IMG/VR virus record: IMGVR_UViG_3300032294_002710
Span: 1-64,000 of that record
Strand: one strand, 5' to 3'
Length of the DNA stretch: 64,000 bases
Source of the DNA: a virus
Shown: one piece after another, positions 25,770 to 62,118 of the stretch
Layout: each line of letters opens with the position of its first letter
Numbering within the stretch: the first letter of the stretch is position 1
Program-made: the position numbers and the translations under genes
Notes under the pieces: model-generated
What the model saw: only the letters and a program-made list of their open reading frames with translations
Database searches by the model: none
What the model was told of the DNA's origin: nothing

Positions 25770-26621
25770 ATGAGACATTTAAGAAGGTTCGAAGAATTGG
25801 ACCTTGATAAATATAAAAATTTTCTTGATAAGTATCAAAAGACCGGATACATATCTACCTCTTCTATTAAGAAATTAAAAGAATGGGGTTTAGATATTAA
25901 AGACTTTTCTCATATCGAGAATCAAGTTGTAAAATCCCTTGATTTCTTTAGAGATGGTGATGTTCATTTGTTTAATGATTATTTCATGGAGGTAAAAGAT
26001 AAATATCCGTATATATCATCTTATTTTTATTACTCATTAGATGTTACTCCTAAGAGCGCAGTAAAGTGGTCTAGTTCATTAGATAAATTTAATATTGTTG
26101 TCTCGATGGATGAGAATAATTTACCATCTAAAGATTCTACTAAAATAGATACTAATACTAGTGTTATTGATAAAGTTATTTCTGGTATAGAGGGTGCTCG
26201 TCAAAAAGAAATTGAAAAGCGAAAAGAACAGATGGATTCTTTCATGAAAAGAAGACCCGGAGCAGATGATGATTGGGTTAAGGGTTCCTATTTAAGAGCA
26301 AAATCTGAAAATTTTATAGAAAATTGCACTATATCTACAATTATAAATCTTCAAGTATTTTTGAATTTAAATGATTATGATCATTATTATAATCTAGGCG
26401 AAGACGAATGGGAATCCTATGATAAATATCTTAGAGAATTGAGAAAAACGGTGGTTGATGATATCGAATTAAATTTAAATTCAATTCTTAAAACATATTT
26501 TTCATCAATTGGACATTCTAATATTAATTCTAAAATAGAAAAAGGAGGATTTGGATGGAGAGGATTTTACGATCCTTCAAGTGATATTGTTATTTTTAAT
26601 ATAAAATGTGAACTAAATTAG
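25770..26621 (+). CDS. Hypothetical protein with capsid-targeting-like N-terminus, 283 aa
   Basis: The N-terminus MRHLRRFEELDLDKYKNF is the shared signature in nearly its commonest form. The rest is a mixed domain with no recognised motif: an aromatic-rich first half, a Lys/Glu-rich helix (KEIEKRKEQMDSFMKRR), and a C-terminal GGFGWRGFYDPSSDIVIF strand. A single gene with its own promoter-like element, it converges on a minus-strand operon with an 8-base overlap. Function unknown. Confidence 0.55.
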   Translation: MRHLRRFEELDLDKYKNFLDKYQKTGYISTSSIKKLKEWGLDIKDFSHIENQVVKSLDFFRDGDVHLFNDYFMEVKDKYPYISSYFYYSLDVTPKSAVKWSSSLDKFNIVVSMDENNLPSKDSTKIDTNTSVIDKVISGIEGARQKEIEKRKEQMDSFMKRRPGADDDWVKGSYLRAKSENFIENCTISTIINLQVFLNLNDYDHYYNLGEDEWESYDKYLRELRKTVVDDIELNLNSILKTYFSSIGHSNINSKIEKGGFGWRGFYDPSSDIVIFNIKCELN

Positions 26622-26879
26622 TTTCTCTAATTTAATTTTTAAATCACCAGTTCCTTTTATTATTCTGTGATATACCCCTTTGTGTATAAAAACTTTACCT
26701 TCAATTTTTATTGGTAGTTCATTATCTAATTGAAATTTCCAATCAGTTTCTTCAATAGGTTCTATTATTCTATCCTCTCTGTCACGATGCCAAGTTAATT
26801 CACCAGATTCTATATCTTGATAGAATGTTCTAATAAAAGTATTTTCAGATATTTTTTCTTCTTTAAATGGTAGTGTCAT
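26613..26879 (-). CDS. Cupin-like small protein conserved in large phages
   Basis: 88 residues. GELTWHRDREDRIIEP, TDWKFQLDNELPI and FIHKGVYHRIIKGTGDL form the strands and metal-like His/Glu pattern of a small cupin (jelly-roll) fold that I associate with T4-like phage genomes. Its ATG overlaps the TGA of the gene before it, so it is the last member of a coupled four-gene operon. The biochemical role is not known. Confidence 0.55.
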   Translation of the reverse strand: MTLPFKEEKISENTFIRTFYQDIESGELTWHRDREDRIIEPIEETDWKFQLDNELPIKIEGKVFIHKGVYHRIIKGTGDLKIKLEKLI

Positions 26880-27238
26880 AATGTAAATGTTAAATGTATT
26901 TCTCTTTCTATTATTCCTTGGCGATCTACTTGAATATCTTCAAAATCAAACTCAATTTTAATATCTGGATATTCTTCTTTGACTTTATCAATACAGGACT
27001 TCAAATTATTTGAAAAATCGTATAACTCTTTTATATTTTCATCGTAATAATCAAACATTGTGGTTCTCTTTAAGACTGGTTCTTTTATAAAGATCTCATA
27101 ATAGTCTTCTATTTCATCTGATTCTCCATCACGATTAAATCCTTCAGCTCCCTCATCTAAAAATTCTGAGAATATAAATTTTAAATATTGAATATCTAGC
27201 TCATTAGAATTTGACTCGTTAAATTTTTTTATTTTCAT
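26876..27238 (-). CDS. Small acidic protein with capsid-targeting-like N-terminus
   Basis: 120 residues: MKIKKFNESNSNELD, then a very acidic domain (GESDEIEDYYEIF, EEYPDIKIEFDFEDIQ). Start and stop overlap the neighbours by ATGA on both sides. F-N-E at residues 6-8 is a possible T4-type protease site. No family recognised. Confidence 0.55.
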   Translation of the reverse strand: MKIKKFNESNSNELDIQYLKFIFSEFLDEGAEGFNRDGESDEIEDYYEIFIKEPVLKRTTMFDYYDENIKELYDFSNNLKSCIDKVKEEYPDIKIEFDFEDIQVDRQGIIEREIHLTFTL

Positions 27239-27813
27239 ATTTTTTCAAAATTTTTTATAGAATCTTCACTGAATATTGCAACATTTTTTGAACCTTTTTC
27301 AATCACAAAGAATCCATCATATCCAGATTCTTTTATCTTATTGATAATAGGTTCACATTCAATTATTCTCCAAGCTCCATTTTTTATTCTCCAAAGATAA
27401 AAACTCACACTTTGTGATTTATCTGTTATATCAAATTCTTTATCTGTATCATAATCATAACCTTTAAATCCAGTGCCAACTTCTATAAACTTCGTACCAT
27501 TAGTCTGATCAACATATTTATCATTAATCATACTCTGTAAAGTGGATTTTAGATTTAATTTTTTCATTGTTTCTTTTTCCATTGGGTTGCAAAGCTTTAA
27601 ATTATCTTTCAATGTAACTTCCCAAACTGCACCATTTGGAAATTCGTCTTTTTCATTGAATCCTGCAAAGTCTTTTGCAAATTCTAAATTAGATGTTAGA
27701 AATATAGCACCTGCAAATCTTTTTTTCTCTGGTGGAAAATCTCCTTTTCTATTTCCGTGATATAGTTTCTCAGAAATAGATTCAAATAGTTTATATGGTT
27801 TTAAATGTTTCAT
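27235..27813 (-). CDS. ADP-ribosyltransferase-like protein with capsid-targeting-like N-terminus
   Basis: 192 residues. After the N-terminus MKHLKPYKLFESISE comes KLYHGNRKGDFPPEKKRF, then AIFLTSNLEFAKDFAGF and AVWEVTLKDN. The order YHG, then a T/S-rich strand followed by a helix with A..FA, then a beta strand is the front half of the ART fold (H-Y-E or R-S-E families). No definite catalytic Glu is assigned. T4 packages its ART (Alt) in the head and injects it, and Alt is also processed by the prohead protease. That parallel makes this the best candidate for an injected host-modifying enzyme. The fold is inferred from motif resemblance only. Confidence 0.5.
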   Translation of the reverse strand: MKHLKPYKLFESISEKLYHGNRKGDFPPEKKRFAGAIFLTSNLEFAKDFAGFNEKDEFPNGAVWEVTLKDNLKLCNPMEKETMKKLNLKSTLQSMINDKYVDQTNGTKFIEVGTGFKGYDYDTDKEFDITDKSQSVSFYLWRIKNGAWRIIECEPIINKIKESGYDGFFVIEKGSKNVAIFSEDSIKNFEKI

Positions 27814-28298
27814 ATTTTTTCAAAAATTAGTTCTACTTGATACATTTCTGGTAAGTAATTTTTTATAGATTTTTTGTTTATTTTAAAATCAAATCCGCTT
27901 TTTTTGTATCCTCTGTAATAAATTTGATAAAATTTATAATCTTCATTTTCCAAAAAACTAATTAAGTGGTTGATTTCATTTTCTATATCATCGAATTGAA
28001 ACGGCGTCCTGTGCCAAATCTCATACGGACCATTGACTTCCACCGCATTTATTTCTACACAAATAAAATTTTTGACGTGTTTGGAACTTTTAAGTCTTTC
28101 CTCATATGCACTTTTATCTTTTTCTGAATAAAATTGGCCGTATGTTGATAAGCTCGGATCGTTTTTTGATTTTCCTACCTTAATTAGATTCGATATAGAA
28201 ATTAAAAAATCATCATCAACTATATTGATAAATATATCCTTAATAGGCAATTCCAAATCATGAGATTCAAAAATTTTATATGATTTTAAATATTTCAT
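27810..28298 (-). CDS. Hypothetical protein with capsid-targeting-like N-terminus, 162 aa
   Basis: MKYLKSYKIFESHDLE is almost identical in pattern to the neighbouring gene's MKHLKPYKLFESISE, though the rest is unrelated. The body is alpha/beta (KNFICVEINAVEVNGPYEIW, YKFYQIYYRGYKKSGF). It overlaps the next start by ATGA. The first gene of the coupled set lies 3 bases upstream. No family recognised. Confidence 0.55.
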   Translation of the reverse strand: MKYLKSYKIFESHDLELPIKDIFINIVDDDFLISISNLIKVGKSKNDPSLSTYGQFYSEKDKSAYEERLKSSKHVKNFICVEINAVEVNGPYEIWHRTPFQFDDIENEINHLISFLENEDYKFYQIYYRGYKKSGFDFKINKKSIKNYLPEMYQVELIFEKI

Positions 28299-28301
28299 AT
28301 T

Positions 28302-28877
28302 TTACCAATAACCGGGATATGTTTTTCCACCAAATAAATGTCCGAATTTATTCAGTCGGCATGCCCAGTAACCTGGTTTAGTTTTATCTTTTTTCAAATG
28401 ACATTGATGACGAGCTGCAAAAGATTTTCTCGATTTTGGATCTGAAACTTTAGCACTCAATCCACCAGAAACATCACCAAAGTGAACCACTTTAACTTTT
28501 CCTGTTTTTGGATTCTTGACAAATACCTTATATTTCTTTGGACCAGAACTTCTTGTCGGATAGTTTAATTTAACTTCACGACCTTTATATTCTGCTTCAT
28601 TAATTTCCTCTATTATTTCAAGAGGTAAATCTAAAGGTACTAATTCACCTTCGAACATTTCAAATCTACCAATATCTGAACCTTCAAAAAGTTCTTTATC
28701 GTGTCCTGATAGTTCTATTCTACCACTATCATATAACTCTCTGGATTCTTTTAATAGTTTAAAATATGAATCTGATCCATATCTAAATATATTTTCAGTA
28801 ACTGACATATTATTATCAATATGATATTGTAGATGTTCGGATACTAACTCCTCGTTGAACTTTTTGATGTATTTCAT
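28302..28877 (-). CDS. Phage protein with conserved basic C-terminal domain and targeting-like N-terminus
   Basis: I take the ATG ending at 28877 (MKYIKKFNEELVSE), since the frame beyond has only a TTG and the promoter-like element sits 18 bases before this ATG. The C-terminal 70 residues, with KYKVFVKNPKTGKVKVVHFG, SRKSFAARHQCHLKKD and KPGYWACRLNKFG, form a basic Cys/His-containing module that I recall from many large T4-like phages, where its role is unknown. It could bind nucleic acid or zinc (inference). Confidence 0.6.
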   Translation of the reverse strand: MKYIKKFNEELVSEHLQYHIDNNMSVTENIFRYGSDSYFKLLKESRELYDSGRIELSGHDKELFEGSDIGRFEMFEGELVPLDLPLEIIEEINEAEYKGREVKLNYPTRSSGPKKYKVFVKNPKTGKVKVVHFGDVSGGLSAKVSDPKSRKSFAARHQCHLKKDKTKPGYWACRLNKFGHLFGGKTYPGYW

Positions 28878-42924: not shown

Positions 42925-43962
42925 ATGAAAACTTTCTTTCTTGAGTACATTTGGTTGGATGGTAATACTCCTCAAAAACTTAGATCTAAAACAAAAATCG
43001 TAAAGGCTAAAAACGAAGATAAAATTAAATTGTCTAATTGGGGTTTTGATGGATCTTCTACAAATCAGGCCGAGACTTCAAAGTCTGAAATGGTTTTAGT
43101 TCCTGTTAATAAATTTAAAGATCCTTTTCGTGAAAACGGATTTTTAGTTATGTGTGAAGTGTATAATACTGACATGACTCCACATTCTTCTAATAAGAGA
43201 TACCAACTTTCAGAAACTTTAAAAGTTTCTGATGAAAAAACTATGTATGGATTTGAGCAAGAGTATATAATTTATGATAGAGAAACAGATAAACCATTAG
43301 GGTGGCCAAAAGATGGTTATCCTCGTCCTCAGGGGGACTATTATTGTGGTGTTGGTGGTAGTAATGTTTCTGGTAGAAAGTTTGTAGACAGACACGCTGA
43401 TCTTTGTTTAGAGGCTGGTCTCTCTTTTACTGGTATAAATGCTGAGGTTATGTTGGGTCAATGGGAGTATCAAATTGGACCGGTTTATGCCTTAGATGGA
43501 TCAGATCAACTTTGGATATCAAGATGGATTTTAGAAAGAGTTTCTGAAGAGTTTAACTATTTTATAGAGTTTCATCCTAAACCATTTAGAGGAAATGATT
43601 GGAATGGTAGTGGAATGCATGTTAACTTCTCTACTGAGTCTATGAGAGAAGATATGAATAATAAAAAACAATTAGTATTTGATGCTTGTGAAAAACTTGG
43701 AAAGTCAATAGACGATCACATAGATGTTTATGGTATTGATAACGAATTTAGATTAACTGGTGCTAATGAAACATGTTCTATAAGTCAGTTTAAATTTGGA
43801 ATCGGTGATAGAACAGCTTCTATACGAATTCCTTTTTCTATAAATGATGATGAAACACCAGGCTATTTAGAAGATCGAAGACCAGCTTCAAACGCTAATC
43901 CATATGAAATATGTGATGTGATGATTAAGACAATATGTGTTGGTGTTGAGGTTGAAAGTTAA
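42925..43962 (+). CDS. glnA: Glutamine synthetase, type II (GSII)
   Basis: 345 residues, full length for the compact eukaryotic-type GSII. Motifs in order are WGFDGSSTNQAET, MYGFEQEYIIYD (metal-binding Glu), YCGVGGSNVSGR, INAEVMLGQWEYQIGP, NGSGMHVNFST (ATP-side loop) and IRIPFSINDDETPGYLEDRRPASNANPY. All catalytic strands look intact. It condenses glutamate and ammonia to glutamine using ATP. A phage copy could sustain nitrogen supply for nucleotide synthesis. GSII is common in Bacteroidota, so host origin by transfer is likely (inference). A single gene with its own terminator. Confidence 0.96.
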   Translation: MKTFFLEYIWLDGNTPQKLRSKTKIVKAKNEDKIKLSNWGFDGSSTNQAETSKSEMVLVPVNKFKDPFRENGFLVMCEVYNTDMTPHSSNKRYQLSETLKVSDEKTMYGFEQEYIIYDRETDKPLGWPKDGYPRPQGDYYCGVGGSNVSGRKFVDRHADLCLEAGLSFTGINAEVMLGQWEYQIGPVYALDGSDQLWISRWILERVSEEFNYFIEFHPKPFRGNDWNGSGMHVNFSTESMREDMNNKKQLVFDACEKLGKSIDDHIDVYGIDNEFRLTGANETCSISQFKFGIGDRTASIRIPFSINDDETPGYLEDRRPASNANPYEICDVMIKTICVGVEVES

Positions 43963-44026: not shown

Positions 44027-44374
44027 ATGAGACATTTAAAAAAGTTTGAAGATCTTGACTATAAAGATATACTAGCTCAACAGGCTAAATTTAGAGAAGA
44101 GATTGAAAAATCTCGACTTGAAGAAATAGAAAGAAGAAGACAGGAATTATCTGGAAAGCATTTGTCAAAGCTATCATCAGAGTCTGAGAGAAAGAGTAAG
44201 ATGGAAACAATGATACAAGAACGACAAGAACTTACCCATTTAGTCATTCAAGCTTTAATTTATTCAGAACAGAATAAAGATGGATTTGATAATTTTAAAA
44301 ATGATTTAAAAGAACTATTGGATAAATATCCATTAGATAAGCTTCCTAGAAGTGGGTCATCAATTTATAGATAA
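44027..44374 (+). CDS. Small charged helical protein with capsid-targeting-like N-terminus
   Basis: 115 residues starting MRHLKKFEDLDYKD, which shares its first eight residues with the gene at 54211 but uses different codons for them. The rest is a charged helix (KFREEIEKSRLEEIERRRQEL) and a short helical domain. It sits directly upstream of the portal gene, among head genes, as expected for an internal head or core protein. Function unproven. Confidence 0.6.
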   Translation: MRHLKKFEDLDYKDILAQQAKFREEIEKSRLEEIERRRQELSGKHLSKLSSESERKSKMETMIQERQELTHLVIQALIYSEQNKDGFDNFKNDLKELLDKYPLDKLPRSGSSIYR

Positions 44375-44427: not shown

Positions 44428-46137
44428 ATGGCATCAACTTATAATCCTCTTGGGCAAAATACAACTCAGTTTAACAGCGCTATTGAAAATCGAGGACTTT
44501 TTAGTAGAATTTTAAGAAACTTATCATCATGGGGTATGAACTATGATGATATGATTATGAGAAACCAAGTCGGTGTTGGTATAAACGAAGATCCTTATAC
44601 TATACAAGGTAACTCAATGTATGACTTCTTTAGTAGAAGAGCTGTTGCCTCTGTTTTAAATAGAAAGTCAATTCCTTATTTAGATAGATCTTATGCTGAT
44701 AAAAGAAGAATTTTAAGAGAATATTCTATAAAGGATGAAATAAGAGATTTCGTATCAACAGTTTGTGATGAATGTGTTATTTACTCTGATAAAGATTTTT
44801 GCAGACCTAAAAACTTATCTAATGACTATACACAAGATGTTACGGATAAATATCAGGAATTCTTTGAGAAAATTTATAATAGATACGGTTTTTCAGATTC
44901 TGTTACCGCTTGGAACTTCATGAAAGATTTCTTGATTGATGGATATTTGGCAATGGAGATAGTTTGGGATGATAAAAAAAAGAATATTATACACTTTAAT
45001 AGATTAAGACCTGAGACTTTGGTTCCAGCTTTTGAACCATCTATAGGTAATATTTGGATTCAGTACCCGGAAGATCCACAATTAAGAAGAATATTTCTTG
45101 ATTCACAAATTATTTTTATTTCTTACTCTACTCAAAATGACTATTCTGAAACTTCATATGTGGAGGGCTTGATAAAACCATATAATCAGTTGAAGATAAT
45201 TGAGCAGACTAAAATTATGTTTAACATAATAAATGCCACTGTTTATCAAAAATTTACTATACCTGTTAAAGGTTTATCTAGACAAAAGGCTGAGGAGCAA
45301 ATAGGTCAATTAATAAATGATTACTCAGAGGAAGTTGAGTGGGATGACTCGTTAGGTACACTTCAAATAAATGGTACTAAACACCTACCATATAATAAAC
45401 AAATTTGGTTTCCAGAGGGTGATGCGGGTACTCCAAATATGGAGTTAGTCTCACCACAAGGACATAACCTAAATGAAGACGATATATTAAAGTGGTTTTA
45501 TAATATTTTAAAAAGAGCTTCAAAAATTCCAGTTCAAAGATTTGAAGGTGATAATGGTGGTGGTAATGTATTTACCGATGCTGCTGAGATGACAAGAGAT
45601 GAGGCTAAGTTTAGTAATTTTATTGGTAGATTAAGAGCGAATTTCAAAGAATTACTTGTTAAACCATTGAAATTGCAAATGTTGGTGGAATTTCCAGAAT
45701 TTAAAGATGATGAGGTTATTTTAAATCAAATTGATGTTGATTTTATTTCAAATCAATTGTTTGAGGAGTGGAAAAAATTAGGAAATATGTCTAAGAAAAT
45801 TGAAATACTTGGTAGTTATACTGGAATTCAGAAGGCTGATGGTACACCTTATTTCCACATAGAATATTTAATAGATCACGTGTTGAAATTATCATCTGAA
45901 GAAAAAGAGGAAAATAAAAGATACTGGGTTAAAGATGCTGCAGGAGCTGGATCTTCAGAGGCAACTCCTGGTGAGGCTGGTGCTGGTGAGGCTGGTGCTG
46001 AATTCGGTGGAGAAGAGGCCGGTGGCGCTCAAGCTACTCCTGAGACCCCTGAAGCTCCCGCTCCTGAGACAGGTGGTGGAGAAGCTGGTGGTGAGGCAGG
46101 TGGTGGAGAAGCTGGTGGTGGAGAATTTGAATTCTAA
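44428..46137 (+). CDS. gp20: Portal protein (T4 gp20-like)
   Basis: 569 residues. The N-terminal part (SMYDFFSRRAVASVLNRKSIPYLDRSY...KRRILREYSIKDEI) and the body (DGYLAMEIVWDDKKKNII, NRLRPETLVPAFEP, VEGLIKPYNQLKIIEQT, WFYNILKRASKIPVQRFEGD) follow the gp20-type portal. The last 75 residues are a low-complexity Gly/Ala/Glu/Pro tail, unusual for a portal. The dodecameric portal is the packaging vertex and head-assembly initiator. The gene order portal, protease-scaffold, capsid matches T4 (20-21-22-23). Confidence 0.93.
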   Translation: MASTYNPLGQNTTQFNSAIENRGLFSRILRNLSSWGMNYDDMIMRNQVGVGINEDPYTIQGNSMYDFFSRRAVASVLNRKSIPYLDRSYADKRRILREYSIKDEIRDFVSTVCDECVIYSDKDFCRPKNLSNDYTQDVTDKYQEFFEKIYNRYGFSDSVTAWNFMKDFLIDGYLAMEIVWDDKKKNIIHFNRLRPETLVPAFEPSIGNIWIQYPEDPQLRRIFLDSQIIFISYSTQNDYSETSYVEGLIKPYNQLKIIEQTKIMFNIINATVYQKFTIPVKGLSRQKAEEQIGQLINDYSEEVEWDDSLGTLQINGTKHLPYNKQIWFPEGDAGTPNMELVSPQGHNLNEDDILKWFYNILKRASKIPVQRFEGDNGGGNVFTDAAEMTRDEAKFSNFIGRLRANFKELLVKPLKLQMLVEFPEFKDDEVILNQIDVDFISNQLFEEWKKLGNMSKKIEILGSYTGIQKADGTPYFHIEYLIDHVLKLSSEEKEENKRYWVKDAAGAGSSEATPGEAGAGEAGAEFGGEEAGGAQATPETPEAPAPETGGGEAGGEAGGGEAGGGEFEF

Positions 46138-46577
46138 GCAGCTTCATTATATTCATAATACGCGTAGAATCCAATTATGAATTTTTGTTTTACCTTTACT
46201 CCCATTATTATTGGATTTATTTGTAAATCTATTCCAGAATTAATTAAACTTTTTAATAGTTTACCATTTGGTGTTTCTAATATCTCAATATTGAGTATTA
46301 TCTCATTTACTTCTAAATGACTATCAATAATAAATGATATTTCATTTATTCTAAAGGCCACATTTTTAAGATTAGTTGTTGATGAAAATATTTCAGAAAT
46401 TCCTAATTCGCACAAGAGTGGTGGATTAATTTCAGTTATATCAAACTGACATTTTTTACCTAAAATAGAGTTTATTTTTATTTCTCTGTATATTGATTTA
46501 TAGTCTCTATACTTTTCAAGTAAATATTTAAAACATTCAAGATTATATCTTTCCTTTAGATTAACATTAGTTATCAT
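46134..46577 (-). CDS. Hypothetical protein, 147 aa, inserted in the head cluster
   Basis: On the opposite strand between portal and protease. The stretch IEILETPNGKLLKSLINSGIDLQINPIIMGVKV resembles the T-P-x-G-x-x-L-x-x-L-I-x-x-G segment of prohead proteases, but the following Ser-Ser-Arg catalytic motif is absent (NPII instead). It could be a decayed or repurposed protease paralogue; alternatively the likeness is chance. It overlaps the end of the gene before it by 11 bases. Confidence 0.45.
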   Translation of the reverse strand: MITNVNLKERYNLECFKYLLEKYRDYKSIYREIKINSILGKKCQFDITEINPPLLCELGISEIFSSTTNLKNVAFRINEISFIIDSHLEVNEIILNIEILETPNGKLLKSLINSGIDLQINPIIMGVKVKQKFIIGFYAYYEYNEAA

Positions 46578-46935
46578 TTTGTGACTTTTTCTTTTCAGAA
46601 ATTGTTAGTTTCATTTTCTTGAAAAGTTTTTTATTCTGAATTGGATATTCTACTCCATAGTTTTTCTGAAGTGTCTCTTTTCTTTTCGATTCTGAGCACT
46701 TTCTACAGTAGTAGATGCCCCAGATATTTCCATACTTAATATAATTCTTGTAGATTACATCTTTTTTAATTCCACATCCGTCACATTCACAGAGTATTTT
46801 ATAGTGAGATCCTTTTGATAGCAATTCTGTTGGTATTATTAAATCATCTCCAATAGAAATATCATATCCTAAATTTTCAAAATATGAAAAATTAGACTCA
46901 TTGATTTTGATTTTAATTTCTCTAGTTATGATCAT
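46567..46935 (-). CDS. Zinc-finger fragment of a homing-endonuclease-type protein
   Basis: 122 residues. Two CxxC pairs (CECDGCG and YYCRKCS) are followed by KRKETLQKNYGVEYPIQN. This N-terminal module usually precedes a nuclease domain in phage homing endonucleases and related proteins (K..T...KYGV..P.Q...). No catalytic domain follows, since the frame ends in a Lys-rich tail, so it is either a truncated mobile gene or a stand-alone DNA-binding module. Confidence 0.5.
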   Translation of the reverse strand: MIITREIKIKINESNFSYFENLGYDISIGDDLIIPTELLSKGSHYKILCECDGCGIKKDVIYKNYIKYGNIWGIYYCRKCSESKRKETLQKNYGVEYPIQNKKLFKKMKLTISEKKKSQNDN

Positions 46936-47088: not shown

Positions 47089-49275
47089 ATGAAATCTATT
47101 CTTATTGTTGAAAATTCAACAAACTCTCTCTCAAAGATTAACGAGAGCAATAATAAGTCCCAAAATATTTTAGGTGGTATTTTCACAGAATTCGATATTA
47201 AAAATCGTAATGAGAGAATTTATACTGCTGATAAATTTCTTCCTTGTTTAGAGGAAATGAATGAAAGGATTACAAACATGGGTTCTGTTTATGGTGAGTT
47301 TGATCATCCAGATGTATTTGATACATCTTTGGCTAGAGCATCACACTTAGTTACAAAAGCGGAATTCGTTAAAGAAAATAATAGAGTCGAAGGTGAAATT
47401 AGATTACTCAACACTCATTGGGGTAAAGAAGCTCAAGCATTGGTTAACGATGGTTGTCCAGTTTTTGTTTCTTCACGCGCTGCTGGTATTACAGAGTCAG
47501 ACGGTACTGTTACATTGAAAAAGTTATTTACTTATGATATTGTGGCTGACCCTGGTTTTGCATCAGCAAAAATGAATGTTAAGACACTTAATGAATCGTT
47601 CGGCTTCTCTAATAAAGCTAACTTTAGGATATATGAAATGTCCGATGAGTCAAAAATAAATGATTTATTTAATATGAACACTAATGATTTAGTTACTAAA
47701 GAACAGTTAACTGATTATTCTAAATATCTTATTAATGAGTTGGCTTCTACTAAGAAAGAAGTTCGTGACGCAATTAAGAAAGGTAATCTTAACCCAAAGA
47801 AATTAGAACAGTTACTTGAGTACTATGAAAACTTAAACGAGACAAATTCTCAAATTGTTAAGTACTTAGACTATTTGGCTGAAAAAGTTCAAGTTGTTGT
47901 TAATGAGAACACAAGTCTTAAAACAACTGCTGAAAAACTTATCAAGCACAATGATTATTTGGCAGAAAACCTTGAAAAGGCAATAAATTACACTGAGTAT
48001 GTTGCTGAAAATCTTGATAAGAATATTGAGTATTCAGAATACTTAGCAGAAAATCTTGACAAGAACATCTCTTACTCAGAATACATCGCTGAAAATCTTG
48101 ATAAGAACATTTCTTATTCTGAATATTTGGCTGAAAATCTTGATAAGAATATAGCTTATTCTGAATATTTGGCTGAAAATCTTGATAAGAACATTGCATA
48201 CGCAGAATACATCGCTGAAAATCTTGATAAGAACATTTCTTATTCAGAATATTTAGCAGAACATCTTGATAATTCTATCGCTTACTCAGAATATTTGGCT
48301 GAGCATGTTGAGGGAAATATCGCATACTCAGAGTACATCGCAGAAAATCTTGATGATAACATTGCATACTCTGAATATATTGCAGAAAACCTTGATAAGT
48401 CAATCTCTTATCAAAGTTTGATTGTTGAAAAATTAAATGGTGGTAAGTTATTTGAAAGTAACGAAGAAGAAGATAGATTACCATCTTTAAATGTCGTTGG
48501 TATTGATTCATACGAAGAAGAGGCCGATGATAAATATGAAGAGGAAGAAGAAAATGCATGGAATGATAACTCAGAAGCTCCTTCTGCTGAAGAAACTCCA
48601 GGCGTATCTGAATCTAATGAGGCTGAAGAAACATCTTCTGAAGCTGATGAGGCTGAAGAAACATCTTCTGAAGCTGATGAAATGTCATCTGAATCTGAGG
48701 AAACACCTTCTGAATCTGATGAATATAATGAGTCACCTGCTTATGAAGGTAACTCTGATACTGAATTATCTAAATCTATTGATAAATTGATCGAAGAAGC
48801 TAAAAAACGTAAAGCTATTGAAACATCCGATCTACACTTTTTAAAATTCTTAAACAAATCTCAGGTTGATAGTTACTACTCTTTAACTAATGAAGAGCAG
48901 GAAGCTGTTACACTTTACATAAGCGAAAAAAGTTTCTTTACACAACAAGATGTGTTGAGATTAATCTCTGAGGCTTTGACATCTAAGAATGAAACTCTTG
49001 AAGAAAGAGTAATCAGATTGATGCCTGAAAACATCAAGCCAATCTGGAATCAATTAAATGAGAGTGCTAGAAAATCCATTTTATCTCAAGCTAGATTATA
49101 TCCAGCTGAGGTTATGTCAACTGATTCACAAGTTGAACATTTCTGGATGACTAGAAATCTCAAGAAAAATGAATCTGTTACTAAGAAATTAGTTTCACAT
49201 GAGAGTATGATTCAAGAAGATAAAATATCTGAAAAGGAATTGAATGCAATCATGGAAAGATTTAAAAACCTTTAA
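47089..49275 (+). CDS. gp21: Prohead protease fused to a scaffold-like repeat and helical domain
   Basis: 728 residues against about 212 for T4 gp21. Residues 1-190 are the S80-type prohead protease: GSVYGEFDHPD gives the catalytic His, VFVSSRAAG the Ser, and LFTYDIVADPGF follows. Residues about 288-440 hold ten 14-residue repeats of the type Y-x-E-Y-[LIV]-A-E-N-L-D-K-N-I-x. An acidic Ser/Glu linker (about 460-560) and a helical C-terminal domain follow. T4 has a separate protease (gp21) and scaffold (gp22), and here both functions seem joined (inference). The repeats contain [LIV]-A-E, matching the T4 protease preference for L/I-x-E, so the core may be digested by its own head. Confidence 0.85.
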   Translation: MKSILIVENSTNSLSKINESNNKSQNILGGIFTEFDIKNRNERIYTADKFLPCLEEMNERITNMGSVYGEFDHPDVFDTSLARASHLVTKAEFVKENNRVEGEIRLLNTHWGKEAQALVNDGCPVFVSSRAAGITESDGTVTLKKLFTYDIVADPGFASAKMNVKTLNESFGFSNKANFRIYEMSDESKINDLFNMNTNDLVTKEQLTDYSKYLINELASTKKEVRDAIKKGNLNPKKLEQLLEYYENLNETNSQIVKYLDYLAEKVQVVVNENTSLKTTAEKLIKHNDYLAENLEKAINYTEYVAENLDKNIEYSEYLAENLDKNISYSEYIAENLDKNISYSEYLAENLDKNIAYSEYLAENLDKNIAYAEYIAENLDKNISYSEYLAEHLDNSIAYSEYLAEHVEGNIAYSEYIAENLDDNIAYSEYIAENLDKSISYQSLIVEKLNGGKLFESNEEEDRLPSLNVVGIDSYEEEADDKYEEEEENAWNDNSEAPSAEETPGVSESNEAEETSSEADEAEETSSEADEMSSESEETPSESDEYNESPAYEGNSDTELSKSIDKLIEEAKKRKAIETSDLHFLKFLNKSQVDSYYSLTNEEQEAVTLYISEKSFFTQQDVLRLISEALTSKNETLEERVIRLMPENIKPIWNQLNESARKSILSQARLYPAEVMSTDSQVEHFWMTRNLKKNESVTKKLVSHESMIQEDKISEKELNAIMERFKNL
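47950..48420 (+). repeat. Tandem 42-base repeat encoding 14-residue scaffold units
   Basis: About eleven head-to-tail 42-base units in frame, encoding YSEYLAENLDKNI and variants. Several neighbouring units are nearly identical in DNA (CTTGATAAGAACATT), others have synonymous changes. Antisense frames over this block are repeat artefacts. Confidence 0.9.
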
Positions 49276-49314: not shown

Positions 49315-51045
49315 ATGTCACACATTAGAATAGACAAACAAAAAGCAGTCAAGAAGTGGTCTCCAGTTCTTGAAAACATGGGTGTTACTGGTGATAGAGT
49401 AGAATGGATGTCAGAATATGCTGAGTTCCACTCAATTAACGAGAACGCTTATGCTAACACAGCTATCGCTGGTATGGGAGCTGTTTTAAATCCAGTTATT
49501 GGTGCTAACACACCAGCTGGTGCTTTGACTACAGGTCAAGGTTTCGCTGGAGTTGCTGGTTCTGGAGATTTAGGTCAAAACCTTCTTCCAGTAGCTATGA
49601 AAATTGCAGCTCAAACAATAGGTCTTGACCTTGTTGCTGTTAAACCTTCTCCAGGTCCAAAAATCGATTTACTTTATATTGACTTTCAGTACGATGATAC
49701 TGATTTGACTTTTAACGGTAGACCACAAGTTTTCAAAGTTACTGCACTTAACGGTACTGCATGGTCAGCAGCTAACACTGCAACTGTAACAGCAGCTTTA
49801 TCAGCAGCTACTACATTGACTTCAGGTGGTCTTAGAGGTGGTAGATTATTCTGTACTGGCTCAACAACTGCTGGTGCTACTGGTGCTTTCACTACAACTG
49901 TACCAAGTGATAACGCTTCTAAAGCAGGTGTTCTTGAATTCTTAGGTTTCTCTCGTGTAGATGGTTACCCAATGTTCAGAGCATGGAGACAATCAAACTC
50001 TCAATCAACAGGTGGTGTTTTCAACTCATTACATGCTGGTTACCCATACACTTTTGACCAAACTCAAAACACATTTGGACCAACTGGTTCAATCGTTTCT
50101 CAATTGAACTTCATTGGTACAATCGTTGCATCAGCTTCTTCAGTTGATTTAGTATCAGCTCTTGAAGATCACCTTCCAGGTTTCTCAACTAACTGGACTT
50201 CTTCATCTGCTTCAGGTGATTATCCAATGAGTCGTCAAACTGATGATAATACTTATGCTGGTATTATCGGACCAAAAGTTTCTTCTAAAACTGTAGCTGT
50301 AGGTACTATTGAAGTATCAACTGCTCTTAGAAGAACAGAAATTGAAGATATCAAGGCTAACACAGGTATGGATATCGTTCAAAAGATGGAATCTATCCTT
50401 GTTAACGAATTGTCTCAGACAATCTCTAGACAAATTGTTGATAGAATCTTCTCATTAGGTACTGCTAACAGAAACACTTCTCCATTATCTTATGGTTGTG
50501 CTACTATCCAAGCTACTGCTTCTACAATCTTCGACCTTAACACAGTTTACGCTGGTTCAAGTATCGTTGGTGGTGAAACTACTCACGCTGTTCAACGTAA
50601 GTTGATCACTAAGATGGTTCACGCTTCTAACTACATTGCAACTGAAGGTCGTGTTGGTCCAGCTCAATTCGCTGTAACTAACGGAGGTCTTGCAGCAGCT
50701 CTTATGGATATCGCTGGTTATACAATTAACCCAGTTAAATCTAAGATTACTGGTCAAGGTCAATTATACCCAGTTGGTCAAATCGGTGATATTTCTATCT
50801 ATGTTGATCCTTATATGAAGTATAACGACAACAGAATCGTTCTTGGTAGAAAGAATAACCCAGATCAACCAGGTCTTATCTTCATTCCTTACTTGATGGC
50901 TCAGTCTATCAGTGTAATTTCTGAAGCGACTTTCGCACCAAGAATGTTGTTACGTTCAAGATACGCAATTGCAGATGTTGGATTCTTCCCAGAAAAACAA
51001 TATATGACAATTGTTGTTACAGACATTAACCAATTATTGAACTAA
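49315..51045 (+). CDS. gp23: Major capsid protein (T4 gp23-like)
   Basis: 576 residues. The helical N-terminus (KKWSPVLENMGVTGDRVEWMSEYAEFHSINE) is like the gp23 pro-region. NTAIAGMGAVLNPVIGANTPAGAL, KIAAQTIGLDLVAVKPSPGPKIDLLYIDFQY, RTEIEDIKANTGMDIVQKMESILVNELSQTISRQIVDRIF and GFFPEKQYMTIVVTDINQLL follow T4 gp23 closely. The pro-region would be cut by the protease encoded upstream. Codon use is richer in GCT, AAC and CTT than in its neighbours, as expected for the most highly expressed gene. Confidence 0.96.
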   Translation: MSHIRIDKQKAVKKWSPVLENMGVTGDRVEWMSEYAEFHSINENAYANTAIAGMGAVLNPVIGANTPAGALTTGQGFAGVAGSGDLGQNLLPVAMKIAAQTIGLDLVAVKPSPGPKIDLLYIDFQYDDTDLTFNGRPQVFKVTALNGTAWSAANTATVTAALSAATTLTSGGLRGGRLFCTGSTTAGATGAFTTTVPSDNASKAGVLEFLGFSRVDGYPMFRAWRQSNSQSTGGVFNSLHAGYPYTFDQTQNTFGPTGSIVSQLNFIGTIVASASSVDLVSALEDHLPGFSTNWTSSSASGDYPMSRQTDDNTYAGIIGPKVSSKTVAVGTIEVSTALRRTEIEDIKANTGMDIVQKMESILVNELSQTISRQIVDRIFSLGTANRNTSPLSYGCATIQATASTIFDLNTVYAGSSIVGGETTHAVQRKLITKMVHASNYIATEGRVGPAQFAVTNGGLAAALMDIAGYTINPVKSKITGQGQLYPVGQIGDISIYVDPYMKYNDNRIVLGRKNNPDQPGLIFIPYLMAQSISVISEATFAPRMLLRSRYAIADVGFFPEKQYMTIVVTDINQLLN

Positions 51046-51537: not shown

Positions 51538-52896
51538 ATGGCAGATCCAATTATCTGGTTTAGTGATAAATTACATGATATAATAGATGATATAAATGGT
51601 CCAGTTGCTGAAGCAATGCTTAAGATGTTAGATGGAAACTATTTAACAAAAAATGAATTAAAAATTAAAAAAGTAGATGTTTCTGTTACCGATTGGAATT
51701 TTGATGTTACTGTTGGTAGTGATGGCCAAGTTCCTGTAAAGCAGCGAATGAAAGTTGGTAAGTTTATAAGACATTTCTTTGGTAGTACATTTACCGATAA
51801 ACAGATTTATGACTTTACAATGGCTTATAATAATTTGAAGAAGGGAATTCCTGCTTCTACTCAAACGGCTAAAGTTAGCTATAAAAAGGTAGAAGTTCCA
51901 GAATTTTCATATAATCCAAAAGATGTTAGATCTACATTTTTATCTCTAACAACTAAGACATATCCACACGGACATGAAGAAGAAGTTTTAAAGTTCTTAC
52001 CAAGCCTTGAAAAGGATCAGTTTGGAAATTATTATAAAATAATTGGCAAATCAGAAACAATGTTTACATCACACTTAGATACAGCTGATAGACAACAAAA
52101 AAATGTTAATGTCTATAGTACAATATTAGCAGATGGTGATGAAATGTTCGTTACTGATAATAAATCTATATTGGGTGCAGATGATAAATCAGGTGTATCT
52201 GTTATGTTGTATATGATGGCTCATAATATTCCAGGTGTTTACTACTTCTTTATTGGAGAAGAGAGAGGAGGAATAGGTTCGCATCAGGTTGCTGGTGTTT
52301 TTGAAACAGTTGAACATTTAAAAGGCATGAAGAGATGTGTATCTTTTGATAGAAGAAATTATTTTTCAATAATAACACATCAATTAGGTAGACAATGTTG
52401 TTCAGATCAGTTTGCTCAAGCTTTAGCAAACGAATTGAATAAAGGTGGATTATCCATCGCTTTAGATCCAACAGGTGTTTATACTGACTCCGCTTCTTTT
52501 ATAGATGAGATACCAGAGTGTACGAATATCTCAGTTGGATATTTTTCAGAACATACTGATAGAGAAAGTCAAAACATTTCATATTTAGAAAGATTAGCAA
52601 AATCTTGTCTAAATGTTAAATGGGAAGAACTTCCAACTGTTAAAAAAGTTGGATTTGATGAGGAAATAATGAGAAAGTATAAGCCATTTATTTCAGATTT
52701 TAAATCAACTATATTTAATCTTGAAACAAAGATGGTTAGTGAGTATGGAAGAGCATTTATTAAAATTGATGTTGATGATCCAGATCCTGCTATTGTTTTT
52801 CAAGATTTAAAATCAGTAGAATCATTATTATCTAAGCATAAAATGGATCCAGATATTCAATTTGATGATAATTATATAAAAATAGAACTAAAATAA
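51538..52896 (+). CDS. Zinc metallopeptidase of the M20/M28/M42 type
   Basis: 452 residues: an unrelated N-terminal domain of about 130 residues, then a peptidase domain. Metal-site motifs occur in order: TSHLDTA (His, Asp), ILGADDKSG (bridging Asp), GEERGGIGSHQ (catalytic Glu and metal Glu), SFDRRNYF (Asp) and a late His in SEHTDRE. This is the co-catalytic zinc aminopeptidase arrangement. It directly follows the NFACT-R gene, and its stop overlaps the next ATG. Possible roles are trimming tagged or released peptides or digesting host proteins. The target is unknown. Confidence 0.8.
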   Translation: MADPIIWFSDKLHDIIDDINGPVAEAMLKMLDGNYLTKNELKIKKVDVSVTDWNFDVTVGSDGQVPVKQRMKVGKFIRHFFGSTFTDKQIYDFTMAYNNLKKGIPASTQTAKVSYKKVEVPEFSYNPKDVRSTFLSLTTKTYPHGHEEEVLKFLPSLEKDQFGNYYKIIGKSETMFTSHLDTADRQQKNVNVYSTILADGDEMFVTDNKSILGADDKSGVSVMLYMMAHNIPGVYYFFIGEERGGIGSHQVAGVFETVEHLKGMKRCVSFDRRNYFSIITHQLGRQCCSDQFAQALANELNKGGLSIALDPTGVYTDSASFIDEIPECTNISVGYFSEHTDRESQNISYLERLAKSCLNVKWEELPTVKKVGFDEEIMRKYKPFISDFKSTIFNLETKMVSEYGRAFIKIDVDDPDPAIVFQDLKSVESLLSKHKMDPDIQFDDNYIKIELK

Positions 52897-53828: not shown

Positions 53829-53860
53829 ACACCAACTCAAAAGGTTGGTGTTTCTTTTTA
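53829..53860. terminator. Terminator after the tmRNA gene
   Basis: ACACCAAC (53829-53836) pairs with GTTGGTGT (53844-53851), followed by TTCTTTTT. It is also close to the stop of the convergent gene at 53858. Confidence 0.8.
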
Positions 53861-54211
53861 TACAATATTGATTTGAATTTTATTTTCTTGGCCACAATCC
53901 CAAATGTTTATAACTTTACATTTTTTATTTAGAGCCTTTTCTATTCTTTCTAAGACTTCTAAAATAGATTTTATTAATTCTAATTTTAGCTTTGAGTATT
54001 CAATTGAATATATGTCTCCCGATATTAATTTGTAGGTATTTATCATTAATGATATCCCTTTTACACTCTTATCAAGAGAGTTGAATGGATATAATTCACC
54101 AGTAATTTCGGGGTAATCATCTTTTAGTTCTTTTAAAATATCTTTAATTTCTGAAATGTCATTTTGATAATCCTCATATTCTGAGTTTTCAAATTTTTTA
54201 AGGTGTCTCAT
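53858..54211 (-). CDS. Small protein with capsid-targeting-like N-terminus, 117 aa
   Basis: Begins MRHLKKFENSEYEDYQ, identical in its first eight residues to the protein at 44027 but with other codons (CAC CTT against CAT TTA). The rest is an acidic helical domain and a C-terminal strand with CKVINIWDCGQEN. A single gene with its own short-spaced TTAATATATAA. Function unknown. Confidence 0.6.
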   Translation of the reverse strand: MRHLKKFENSEYEDYQNDISEIKDILKELKDDYPEITGELYPFNSLDKSVKGISLMINTYKLISGDIYSIEYSKLKLELIKSILEVLERIEKALNKKCKVINIWDCGQENKIQINIV

Positions 54212-56496: not shown

Positions 56497-56784
56497 ATGA
56501 TAATTAAGAAGTTTAACGAGTCACAAGATAGTGGAAATGAACTCGAAATGTATTTAGCAGATCTAAAAAAATTAGGATTTGAGGTTAAATATCGTGTTTT
56601 ACAAGGACTTAATGGCACATCAATAAGAGCTACTAAAAGAGATTGTGATTTTAATGCATCTGTTGATGCTTATAAATCTTTATATAACAAATTAGAAAGT
56701 AGTGATAAATATAGTTTTATAAATAATTCTATTAATTTTAATTATGGAACATGCCGTATCTCAATGGATATGAAAAATAAATAA
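56497..56784 (+). CDS. Small protein with capsid-targeting-like N-terminus, 95 aa
   Basis: MIIKKFNESQDSGNELE matches the signature, with F-N-E as the candidate cleavage site. It is followed by a compact alpha/beta domain (YLADLKKLGFEVKYRVLQGL...INFNYGTCRISMDM). A single gene between its own promoter-like element and a terminator. Function unknown. Confidence 0.55.
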   Translation: MIIKKFNESQDSGNELEMYLADLKKLGFEVKYRVLQGLNGTSIRATKRDCDFNASVDAYKSLYNKLESSDKYSFINNSINFNYGTCRISMDMKNK

Positions 56785-60644: not shown

Positions 60645-61334
60645 TTATTTTTTACTTATTGTGTTTATAATATCTCTCTCACTTTCGGTTTTTTGAATAT
60701 TAAAATCAGTTAAATCAATGTCTCTAATTAGATTTCTGAATTTTCTATCGGTATATGACCAACTATTTGATTTTATAACAATATTGTTGTCTACTAGTCT
60801 AACAGTTGTGTCATTACTAAAATCACTTTTTGCTGCTGAATTTCTACTTTTAATTTCTTTAAAAGTCTGCATTAATTTAATATCACTTCTATCTACTTCG
60901 GTTTCTAATAATATGAATAGGTATATTGCTGGGTTATAGGTTATTGTTCCAACATTTATGTGTAAAAAGCAATTATCGTATCTTTCTGATATTTGATAAA
61001 GCTCTCTAAAAATACTGAATATCTTTTTATCTTTTATAAGATTTCTTTTTCCGAATCTATCTCCTAATTTTACAGTATCTTGAAGTTGGTCTAATTTAAT
61101 TTCTATGCAGAAACAATATTTATCATCATCATAAATTGGCTTATTGTGTAAAATATTTAATACCTTCTCACCAATTTGTCCTCTATCTAAAGCTTGTTTA
61201 CTAAAATACCCTTTATGTAGTTCGTAATTAATTAGTTCATCTCTTAGATCTAATAGTACATCACTAAGATCTTGCTCGTCTTCTTCATGTGCCTCTCTTA
61301 GTAACTCTATGAACTTTAATATTTTATTTTTCAT
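60645..61334 (-). CDS. Hypothetical protein, 229 aa
   Basis: The N-terminus MKNKILKFIELLREAHEE is a longer version of the shared signature (KFIELLRE). The body is alpha/beta (IYDDDKYCFCIEIKLDQL, YDNCFLHINVGTITYNPAIYLFILL) and ends in a basic helix. It overlaps the gene before it by 11 bases and is the last of four minus-strand genes. No motif recognised. Confidence 0.55.
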   Translation of the reverse strand: MKNKILKFIELLREAHEEDEQDLSDVLLDLRDELINYELHKGYFSKQALDRGQIGEKVLNILHNKPIYDDDKYCFCIEIKLDQLQDTVKLGDRFGKRNLIKDKKIFSIFRELYQISERYDNCFLHINVGTITYNPAIYLFILLETEVDRSDIKLMQTFKEIKSRNSAAKSDFSNDTTVRLVDNNIVIKSNSWSYTDRKFRNLIRDIDLTDFNIQKTESERDIINTISKK

Positions 61335-62118
61335 AGATATTTACTAAAAATTTAACTTTTATTTCACCTCTCATTGTCGGTGAATTTTTACTTGTTACTG
61401 TTTCAATGTCAAAAAAATGTTTAACTTGATAGATATCTGGTAAATTAAATAATTCTTCAGTTAATTTTATAAAAATCGATTTAATTTTTGATAACTCATC
61501 AATCATCTCTAATTCAATTTTATATGTTTTTTCTAAAGTCATATAGTACATTGGTAAAGATCCAGTTGTGTGCATTAGATTCATTTTAGAATCTTTTAAA
61601 AAAACTCTACTAACATTACATTCATATTTATTTGCTCTAAAATCTTTTAGAAGATCGTTAAAAGATCTAGCTGATTTTTTGTGATATAATGCTTTTGTTT
61701 CTAGACTATTTTCGTCAAATTTCAATCTTAGTTTTAAATATCCATCACCTCTTTTTAAATCAAATAATGAATAGTCTTCTATGTGATATAAAGATTCAAT
61801 TGCATAAGAGTGCATTCTTCTATCTTTTTCTTTACTCTCATTCGATTTAATATAGACTTCGATACATGGTGTTAGTCCAGCTGCTGCGTATGCTTCAGTC
61901 TTTTCCTCAACTTCCAATTTGTTCTCATATACATATTCAAAATTCTTTCCTTTTAGATAAAACTTTACCTCGATTGAAACATCTATCCCATCATGTAGTT
62001 CAGCAAATGATTCAAATATTTCATCTTCTGTGATAAACCAAATAGATTTTATAAAATTTTCATTTCTATCGTGTCTTCTGACGTATGTACTTTCAAAAAG
62101 ATATTTTAGACTTCTCAT
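61324..62118 (-). CDS. Hypothetical protein, 264 aa, related to its upstream neighbour
   Basis: MRSLKYLFESTYVRRHD gives a clear L-F-E-S targeting-like start. The middle contains IEDYSLFDLKRGDGYLKLRLKF, paralleled by ITDYSIFDVKYEPKF in the next gene upstream (62120-62809). Similar overall strand order suggests the two are distant paralogues. Beta-rich, no catalytic motif seen. Function unknown. Confidence 0.55.
   Translation of the reverse strand: MRSLKYLFESTYVRRHDRNENFIKSIWFITEDEIFESFAELHDGIDVSIEVKFYLKGKNFEYVYENKLEVEEKTEAYAAAGLTPCIEVYIKSNESKEKDRRMHSYAIESLYHIEDYSLFDLKRGDGYLKLRLKFDENSLETKALYHKKSARSFNDLLKDFRANKYECNVSRVFLKDSKMNLMHTTGSLPMYYMTLEKTYKIELEMIDELSKIKSIFIKLTEELFNLPDIYQVKHFFDIETVTSKNSPTMRGEIKVKFLVNIYEK

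What the first reader, a model, noticed from the sequence alone, without database searches (positions are those of the whole stretch)
47089..49275. Prohead protease fused to a self-digestible repeat scaffold
The protease domain continues into ten 14-residue repeats, each carrying [LIV]-A-E, then an acidic linker and a helical domain. T4-type proteases cut after L/I-x-E. A repeat that offers one cut site every 14 residues, in the same chain as the protease, would be a core that shreds itself into small peptides on maturation. T4 uses separate genes 21 and 22.
Basis: partly seen in the sequence, partly recalled or inferred. Interest (0 to 1): 0.75.

Follow-up and report, generated by a model that had tools for sequence, protein, structure and literature searches.

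The report
Capsid protease fused to self-cutting scaffold
A giant bacteria-infecting virus makes its head-maturation protease and what is very probably its temporary inner scaffold as one protein chain, and the scaffold part carries a probable cut site about every 14 amino acids, so the core could digest itself when the head matures; this is a new variant of an arrangement known from other viruses rather than a new kind of system.

Summary
Window 47089-49275 encodes a 728-aa chain: a T4 gp21-type (S77) protease, a long helix with eleven clean 14-residue Y-[LIV]-A-E repeats (degenerate copies flank them), an acidic linker, and a helical C-terminal domain. It lies between a T4-type portal gene and the gp23-type capsid gene of a Mahaphage-type huge phage.

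The same fused gene occurs in every complete relative examined (huge phages, Lak, two Tenacibaculum phages). T4, cyanophages, a pelagiphage, PAU and Campylobacter phages keep separate genes. No gp22-type scaffold gene was found in the fused-gene genomes.

Self-digestion is supported but not shown. [LI]xE is about twofold enriched in every scaffold tested, including T4-like gp22. The repeat's Glu is invariant in 603 repeats from 54 proteins. A cut-like site follows the protease fold in all 22 gp21s aligned. The capsid protein keeps a conserved SINE|N site.

Dense cut sites are normal for such scaffolds (T4 gp22 is denser). Protease-scaffold fusion is known in phage P2 and herpesviruses.

Side finding: 19 of 159 genes share a leader resembling T4's capsid-targeting peptide.

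The parts
47089..49275 (+). fused prohead protease-scaffold gene, 728 aa
   Evidence: homologous fused gene in IMG/VR relatives and in complete phages of 225-735 kb
47104..47112 (+). predicted N-terminal self-cleavage site I-V-E8|N
   Evidence: aligns with T4 LLIE9|T; similar site in most fused and split gp21s
47089..47595 (+). S77/gp21-type protease domain (residues 1-169); H73 47305-47307, S128 47470-47472, D150 47536-47538
   Evidence: phrog_207; fold match 5jbl; triad alignment
47587..47595 (+). predicted release site L-N-E169|S between protease and scaffold
   Evidence: x-E|[SAG] site after the last strand of the fold in the 22 aligned gp21s, T4 ITE187|S; E169 invariant in alignment A2
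47617..47658 (+). stretch with unusually low synonymous variation (codons 177-190), cause unknown
47674..47676 (+). M196, candidate internal start of a scaffold-only product (suggestive only)
   Evidence: start-like upstream context, 98.5th percentile of internal Mets, mostly explained by the amino acids (p 0.053)
47698..48438 (+). predicted long helix, residues 204-450
   Evidence: AlphaFold2 model, moderate confidence
47947..48408 (+). eleven clean 14-residue repeats Y-x-E-Y-[LIV]-A-E-[NH]-L-D-K-N-I-x (residues 287-440)
48457..48783 (+). acidic, predicted disordered linker (residues 457-565) without any [LI]xE
48784..49272 (+). C-terminal helical domain (residues 566-728), shared by all fused proteins
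   Evidence: hhalign: 462-kb clade E 2.6e-25, PTm1/pT24 E 3.9e-9, Lak E 2.5e-5 with the combined profile
44428..46137 (+). T4 gp20-type portal protein
   Evidence: Pfam Portal_T4 E 1.8e-56
49315..51045 (+). T4 gp23-type major capsid protein; predicted maturation site S-I-N-E43|N at 49435-49443
   Evidence: Pfam Gp23 E 6.8e-28; [ILM]-x-E|N in the capsid proteins of all three huge-phage clades

Best explanation
The gene encodes the prohead protease and the internal assembly scaffold of a Mahaphage-type huge phage as one polypeptide. Inferred mechanism: the chains assemble through the long repeat helix and the C-terminal domain into a core on which the gp23-type shell grows. On completion the protease activates by cutting its own N-terminus (LIVE8|N), frees itself from the scaffold at LNE169|S, cuts the scaffold helix at the Glu of each Y-[LIV]-A-E|N repeat into about 14-residue peptides, cuts the C-terminal domain at further [LI]xE sites, and trims the capsid protein at SINE43|N. 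The acidic linker lacks [LI]xE sites and may survive as one roughly 110-residue peptide. Shown by sequence or model: the fusion, the protease fold and catalytic residues, the repeats, the conserved candidate sites, the gene order, and the absence of a gp22-type gene in complete relatives. Inferred: scaffold function, cleavage at these sites, order of events.
For: Fold and aligned triad of T4 gp21. Same fused gene, followed by the capsid gene, in the complete huge-phage relatives and both Tenacibaculum phages, and no gp22-type gene in any of them, while the same profile finds T4 and HTVC008M gp22. [LI]xE is about twofold enriched over shuffling in every scaffold tested: window clade 1.93 (C-terminal domain alone 2.09), 735-kb clade 2.00, 462-kb clade 2.42, PTm1/pT24 2.54, Lak 1.96, T4-like gp22 2.17; mature capsid proteins 1.12. 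P1 Glu is 100% in 603 repeats of 54 proteins and 96% of 161 repeats in the 735-kb clade, found with that position masked; Lys at +4, its possible salt-bridge partner, is only 71%. Candidate release site in the 22 aligned gp21s. Conserved capsid-protein site. T4 gp21 cuts after L/I-X-E and degrades gp22 (PMC9026906, PMC9958956).
Against: No cleavage data. The scaffold part shows no detectable sequence homology to gp22 (hhalign probability below 3%). In the 462-kb clade the repeats decay and P1 Glu drops to 75%, so the array is not required for function across the group. The proteins compared are related, so invariance counts sequences, not independent events. Val occurs at P3 in 8% of repeats and is outside T4's L/I consensus. 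The model of the helix is of moderate confidence only. The gp22 profile also fails to find PAU's annotated scaffold, so a divergent extra scaffold gene is not excluded. In Lak the capsid gene does not directly follow the fused gene.
Confidence: 0.75

Rival explanations
1. The repeat helix is a structural coiled-coil core or internal protein that is released whole (cut only at LNE169|S and near the linker). Y-[LIV]-A-E is conserved for helix packing, not as protease sites.
For: 14 residues equal two heptads; the model shows one long helix that resembles coiled-coil bundles. Tyr at the P4 position is as invariant as Glu. The repeat motif decays in the 462-kb clade.
Against: [LI]xE is enriched at exactly that spacing in all scaffolds, including ones without the repeats and the non-repeat C-terminal domain, and not in mature capsid proteins. 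Glu stays invariant when the possible salt-bridge partner at +4 changes. Other helix-rich ORFs in the record average 1.23-fold, although one of five reaches 2.21.
Confidence: 0.17
2. As in herpesvirus UL26/UL26.5 and, from memory, lambda C/Nu3, most scaffold is made from a nested start at M196, so the full-length fusion is the minority species and the protease cuts mainly in trans.
For: T4 uses about 580 gp22 but only 55-100 gp21 copies (PMC9958956, PMC5694885), a ratio that a 1:1 fusion cannot give. M196 lies 27 residues behind the candidate release site, has the most start-like context of the 11 internal Mets in the gene (score 4.4; true starts median 4.3), and synonymous variation dips just upstream.
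Against: The context is largely dictated by the amino acids (p 0.053 in the window, median p 0.17 in relatives), and 17 of 110 relatives lack a Met at this place by the pattern used. P2 gpO is described as one chain with both functions (PMC7552001). Compatible with the main explanation rather than opposed to it.
Confidence: 0.25
3. The C-terminal part is not the scaffold but a long propeptide or ejected internal protein, as giant phages related to phiKZ have, and an unrecognised gene supplies the scaffold.
For: phiKZ-type giant phages cut long propeptides at several sites (PMC10052503). The C-terminal part has no detectable homology to gp22.
Against: In the window, PTm1 and pT24 no other ORF stands between the fused gene and the capsid gene, the slot that gp22 fills in T4, cyanophage and pelagiphage. 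PTm1's protein is deposited as 'prohead core scaffolding protein and protease' (annotation only).
Confidence: 0.1

Closest known systems
T4 gp21 protease plus gp22 scaffold
   Same: Protease fold, catalytic triad positions, N- and C-terminal candidate self-cleavage sites, gene position before gp23, scaffold rich in L/I-x-E
   Different: Here one gene and one chain; scaffold without detectable gp22 homology; sites in a 14-residue tandem array
Tenacibaculum phages PTm1 and pT24 (annotated 'prohead core scaffolding protein and protease' and 'prohead core scaffold'), and the fused genes of uncultured huge phages LR756500-LR756504, LR745206 and of Lak
   Same: Same fused architecture and same C-terminal domain; same gene order where seen, except Lak
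   Different: PTm1, pT24 and Lak lack the 14-residue repeat; the 462-kb clade has a degenerate version
Phage P2 gpO
   Same: N-terminal serine protease and C-terminal scaffold in one protein that cleaves itself and the capsid protein (PMC7552001)
   Different: Homology not tested here; from general knowledge the protease families are only distantly related; no repeat array described
Herpesvirus UL26/UL26.5 maturational protease-scaffold
   Same: Protease, release (R) site, helical scaffold, C-terminal region; possibly a nested scaffold-only product (PMC12474303)
   Different: Two main sites (R and M) rather than many; nested product established there, only suggestive here

Membership tests
Peptidase S77 (T4 gp21 prohead protease) | catalytic His, Ser and Asp | tested here: met
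   H73, S128, D150 align with T4 H85, S140, D168 and are invariant in 22 sequences; that T4 gp21 has an H/S/D triad is from PMC5694885
Peptidase S77 (T4 gp21 prohead protease) | gp21 fold | tested here: met
   Foldseek 5jbl E 5.6e-6, TM-score 0.72 on the target; profile search also finds 5jbl, E 2.2e-5
Peptidase S77 (T4 gp21 prohead protease) | profile match above curated cut-off | tested here: inconclusive
   Pfam 22.9 bits against a cut-off of 27; phrog_207 E 2.5e-28; Lak, PTm1 and LR756500 homologues are above the Pfam cut-off
Peptidase S77 (T4 gp21 prohead protease) | cleaves after L/I-X-E | not testable with these tools
   candidate sites conserved only
T4 gp22 scaffold family | sequence homology to gp22 | tested here: not met
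   hhalign probability below 3% in all comparisons; gp22 profile finds nothing in fused-gene genomes
T4 gp22 scaffold family | gene slot immediately before gp23 | tested here: met
T4 gp22 scaffold family | rich in L/I-X-E sites | tested here: met
   1.93-fold over shuffled here against 2.17-fold in gp22
fused protease-scaffold arrangement (P2 gpO, herpesvirus UL26) | protease and scaffold in one chain with a release site between | tested here: inconclusive
   protease and helical part are one ORF, candidate release site LNE169|S; scaffold function and cleavage not tested
fused protease-scaffold arrangement (P2 gpO, herpesvirus UL26) | nested scaffold-only product (herpesvirus) | tested here: inconclusive
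   M196 context and synonymous constraint suggestive only
fused protease-scaffold arrangement (P2 gpO, herpesvirus UL26) | C-terminal domain binds the capsid protein | not testable with these tools
   domain is conserved; binding unknown

The most novel reading that the evidence does not exclude
A tandem array of near-identical protease sites has been built and kept by selection as the backbone of the scaffold itself, so that one gene gives a core that assembles and then erases itself into uniform 14-residue peptides, with extra scaffold supplied from a nested start behind the protease release site.
Probability: 0.25. Interest if true: 0.65.

Novelty: new variant of a known kind. Interest (0 to 1): 0.45.

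Why it matters
The largest known phages belong to this group, and I found no study of how their heads are assembled. If right, one gene supplies both maturation protease and scaffold, which fixes the protease's position and dose inside the core. The regular site array gives a clean prediction (14-residue peptides ending in AE) that mass spectrometry of maturing heads could test even on enriched environmental virions. It also predicts the cut motif for other head proteins, including many genes with a capsid-targeting-like leader.

Tried and rejected
1. Homology of the scaffold part to gp22: hhalign and hmmsearch, with and without the repeats, gave nothing. 2. M184 as an internal start on account of its upstream AGGA: rejected, because none of 57 gene starts in the window has AGGA at start spacing and its context score is ordinary. 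3. Repeat number as a capsid-size ruler: not supported, because Lak (541 kb) has no repeats and the 642-kb and 735-kb clades carry similar numbers. 4. Glu conserved as salt-bridge partner of Lys at +4: unlikely, since Lys varies while Glu does not. 6. Literature search found no paper discussing the fusion; [quoted passage not shown] Papers outside the open library were not seen.

Full report
What is there. The window is the first 64,000 bases of a 134,852-base virus record. ORF 47089-49275 (+) encodes 728 residues. Upstream is a T4-type portal (44428-46137) and downstream a gp23-type capsid protein (49315-51045). The closest complete genomes are uncultured phages of 642 and 635 kb, 79% and 76% identical over the protein. 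PMC7162821 places all of its largest genomes in its Mahaphage clade with the Lak phages, and predicts Bacteroidetes hosts for the five over 634 kb; its largest genome is 735 kb. That these particular records are in that clade is inferred from their sizes.

Protease. Pfam S77 matches weakly, phrog_207 strongly. AlphaFold2 on 27 sequences gives a protease fold (residues 4-153), a disordered segment (155-187), a long helix (204-450, with small breaks), a disordered acidic stretch (about 450-555) and a helical C-terminus. Mean pLDDT is 59.7, so only the protease and the C-terminal helices are moderately reliable. The best solved match is T4 gp21 (5jbl). Sixteen positions, including the start Met, are invariant between window, relatives, T4, cyanophage, pelagiphage, PAU, PA5oct and others; H73, S128 and D150 are among them.

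Fused or split. The protease and scaffold parts are one ORF in the window, in the intact IMG/VR relatives, in LR756500, LR756501, LR756502 and LR756504, Lak-A1, PTm1 and pT24. They are separate genes in T4, S-CRM01, S-SCSM2R, HTVC008M, PAU, PA5oct and Campylobacter phage F357. A gp22 profile finds T4 and HTVC008M but none of the seven fused-gene genomes; it also misses PAU's annotated scaffold, so the absence applies to gp22-type genes only. The C-terminal domain is shared by all fused proteins, for Lak weakly, and was not seen without the protease in the phage collection.

Repeats and sites. The 14-residue unit reads Y-x-E-Y-[LIV]-A-E-[NH]-L-D-K-N-I-x. With the Glu masked during detection, Glu is 100% in 603 repeats of 54 non-identical proteins of the window clade, 96% of 161 repeats in the 735-kb clade, and 75% of 48 in the 462-kb clade, where the unit is degenerate. 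Repeat number varies from 10 to 15 in the window clade. Across all scaffolds [LI]xE is about twofold above shuffled sequence, while E one residue to either side is mostly not (the repeats also raise +8); T4-like gp22 behaves the same way and mature capsid proteins do not. In the window's own record the fused scaffold ranks second of 71 long ORFs. In-silico digestion after [LI]xE gives nine consecutive 14-residue peptides (more if Val at P3 is accepted) and leaves a 113-residue acidic piece; T4 gp22 digested the same way gives pieces of 4-41 residues, so shredding as such is ordinary.

Conserved candidate sites elsewhere. The N-terminus LIVE8|N corresponds to T4 LLIE9|T, where removal of nine residues is proposed to activate gp21 (PMC9958956). 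Directly behind the last strand of the fold, the 22 aligned gp21s, fused or split, carry a site of the form hydrophobic-x-E|[SAG] (loosely aligned in pT24): window LNE169|S, T4 ITE187|S. C-terminal autocleavage of T4 gp21 has been suggested (cited in PMC5694885). The fused scaffold therefore starts just behind a site that the split proteins also have. Capsid proteins of the three huge-phage clades have an almost invariant [ILM]-x-E|N near residue 43. Asn at P1' is shared by the N-terminal site, the capsid site and most repeats in the window.

Stoichiometry. T4 uses about 580 gp22 and 55-100 gp21 (PMC9958956, PMC5694885). A fusion gives one to one unless a nested product exists. Codons 177-190 show low synonymous variation, and M196 has the most start-like context in the gene, but the amino acids explain most of it. 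This is a lead only.

Judgement. The anatomy is confirmed, the protease assignment is firm, the scaffold assignment is likely, and self-digestion is likely but undemonstrated. The system works like T4 gp21/gp22 and is arranged like P2 gpO (PMC7552001) and herpesvirus UL26 (PMC12474303). It is not shown to belong to the gp22 family.

Noticed in passing
window 25770-26621(+), 26876-28877(-, four genes), 44027-44374(+), 53858-54211(-), 56497-56784(+), 61324-62118(-); further in the same record up to 130822: 19 of 159 non-overlapping ORFs start with a shared leader such as MKHLKPYKLFE|S, MKYLKSYKIFE|S, MRHLKKFEDL or MIIKKFNES (0.06 expected by shuffling); 30 of 435 in the first 300 kb of LR756502 and none in PTm1 or T4 by the same pattern. 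It resembles PAU's MKT..QLYEA and, from memory, T4's capsid-targeting peptide, and may mark head-internal cargo cut by this protease. Of ten leader-type proteins scanned, none passed a Pfam cut-off.
   Followed up: partly
L264 (LR756501 10600-12600, - strand) and L265 (LR756500 154300-155900, - strand): Two huge phages carry a second, short S77-like ORF in which the catalytic His and Ser positions are replaced (GELGYP...FRPRAAG; GELYNP...), apparently inactive paralogues of the prohead protease. SPN3US has a comparable divergent paralogue, gp117 (PMC5694885).
   Followed up: partly
window 47617-47658: Codons 177-190 of the fused gene are almost unchanged at synonymous positions in many relatives, including most of the 735-kb clade, where the proteins are only about 50-55% identical. 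A promoter, RNA element or homing target are possible causes.
   Followed up: partly
window 51538-52896: A PepT-like peptidase gene (phrog_4191, E 4.4e-68) lies behind the capsid gene; LR756502 has a gene of similar length in the same place. It could process the released peptides (speculation).
   Followed up: no
window 42925-43962: Phage-encoded GlnII-type glutamine synthetase (NF041605, E 2.6e-119, below the equivalog cut-off).
   Followed up: no
window, gene starts: None of 57 gene starts has an AGGA-type Shine-Dalgarno motif; upstream regions are A/T-rich, as expected for phages of Bacteroidota.
   Followed up: no
window 46134-46935(-): Two short minus-strand ORFs interrupt the portal-protease interval; the second resembles the zinc-ribbon part of homing-endonuclease-like ORFs near head genes in relatives (by eye only).
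   Followed up: no
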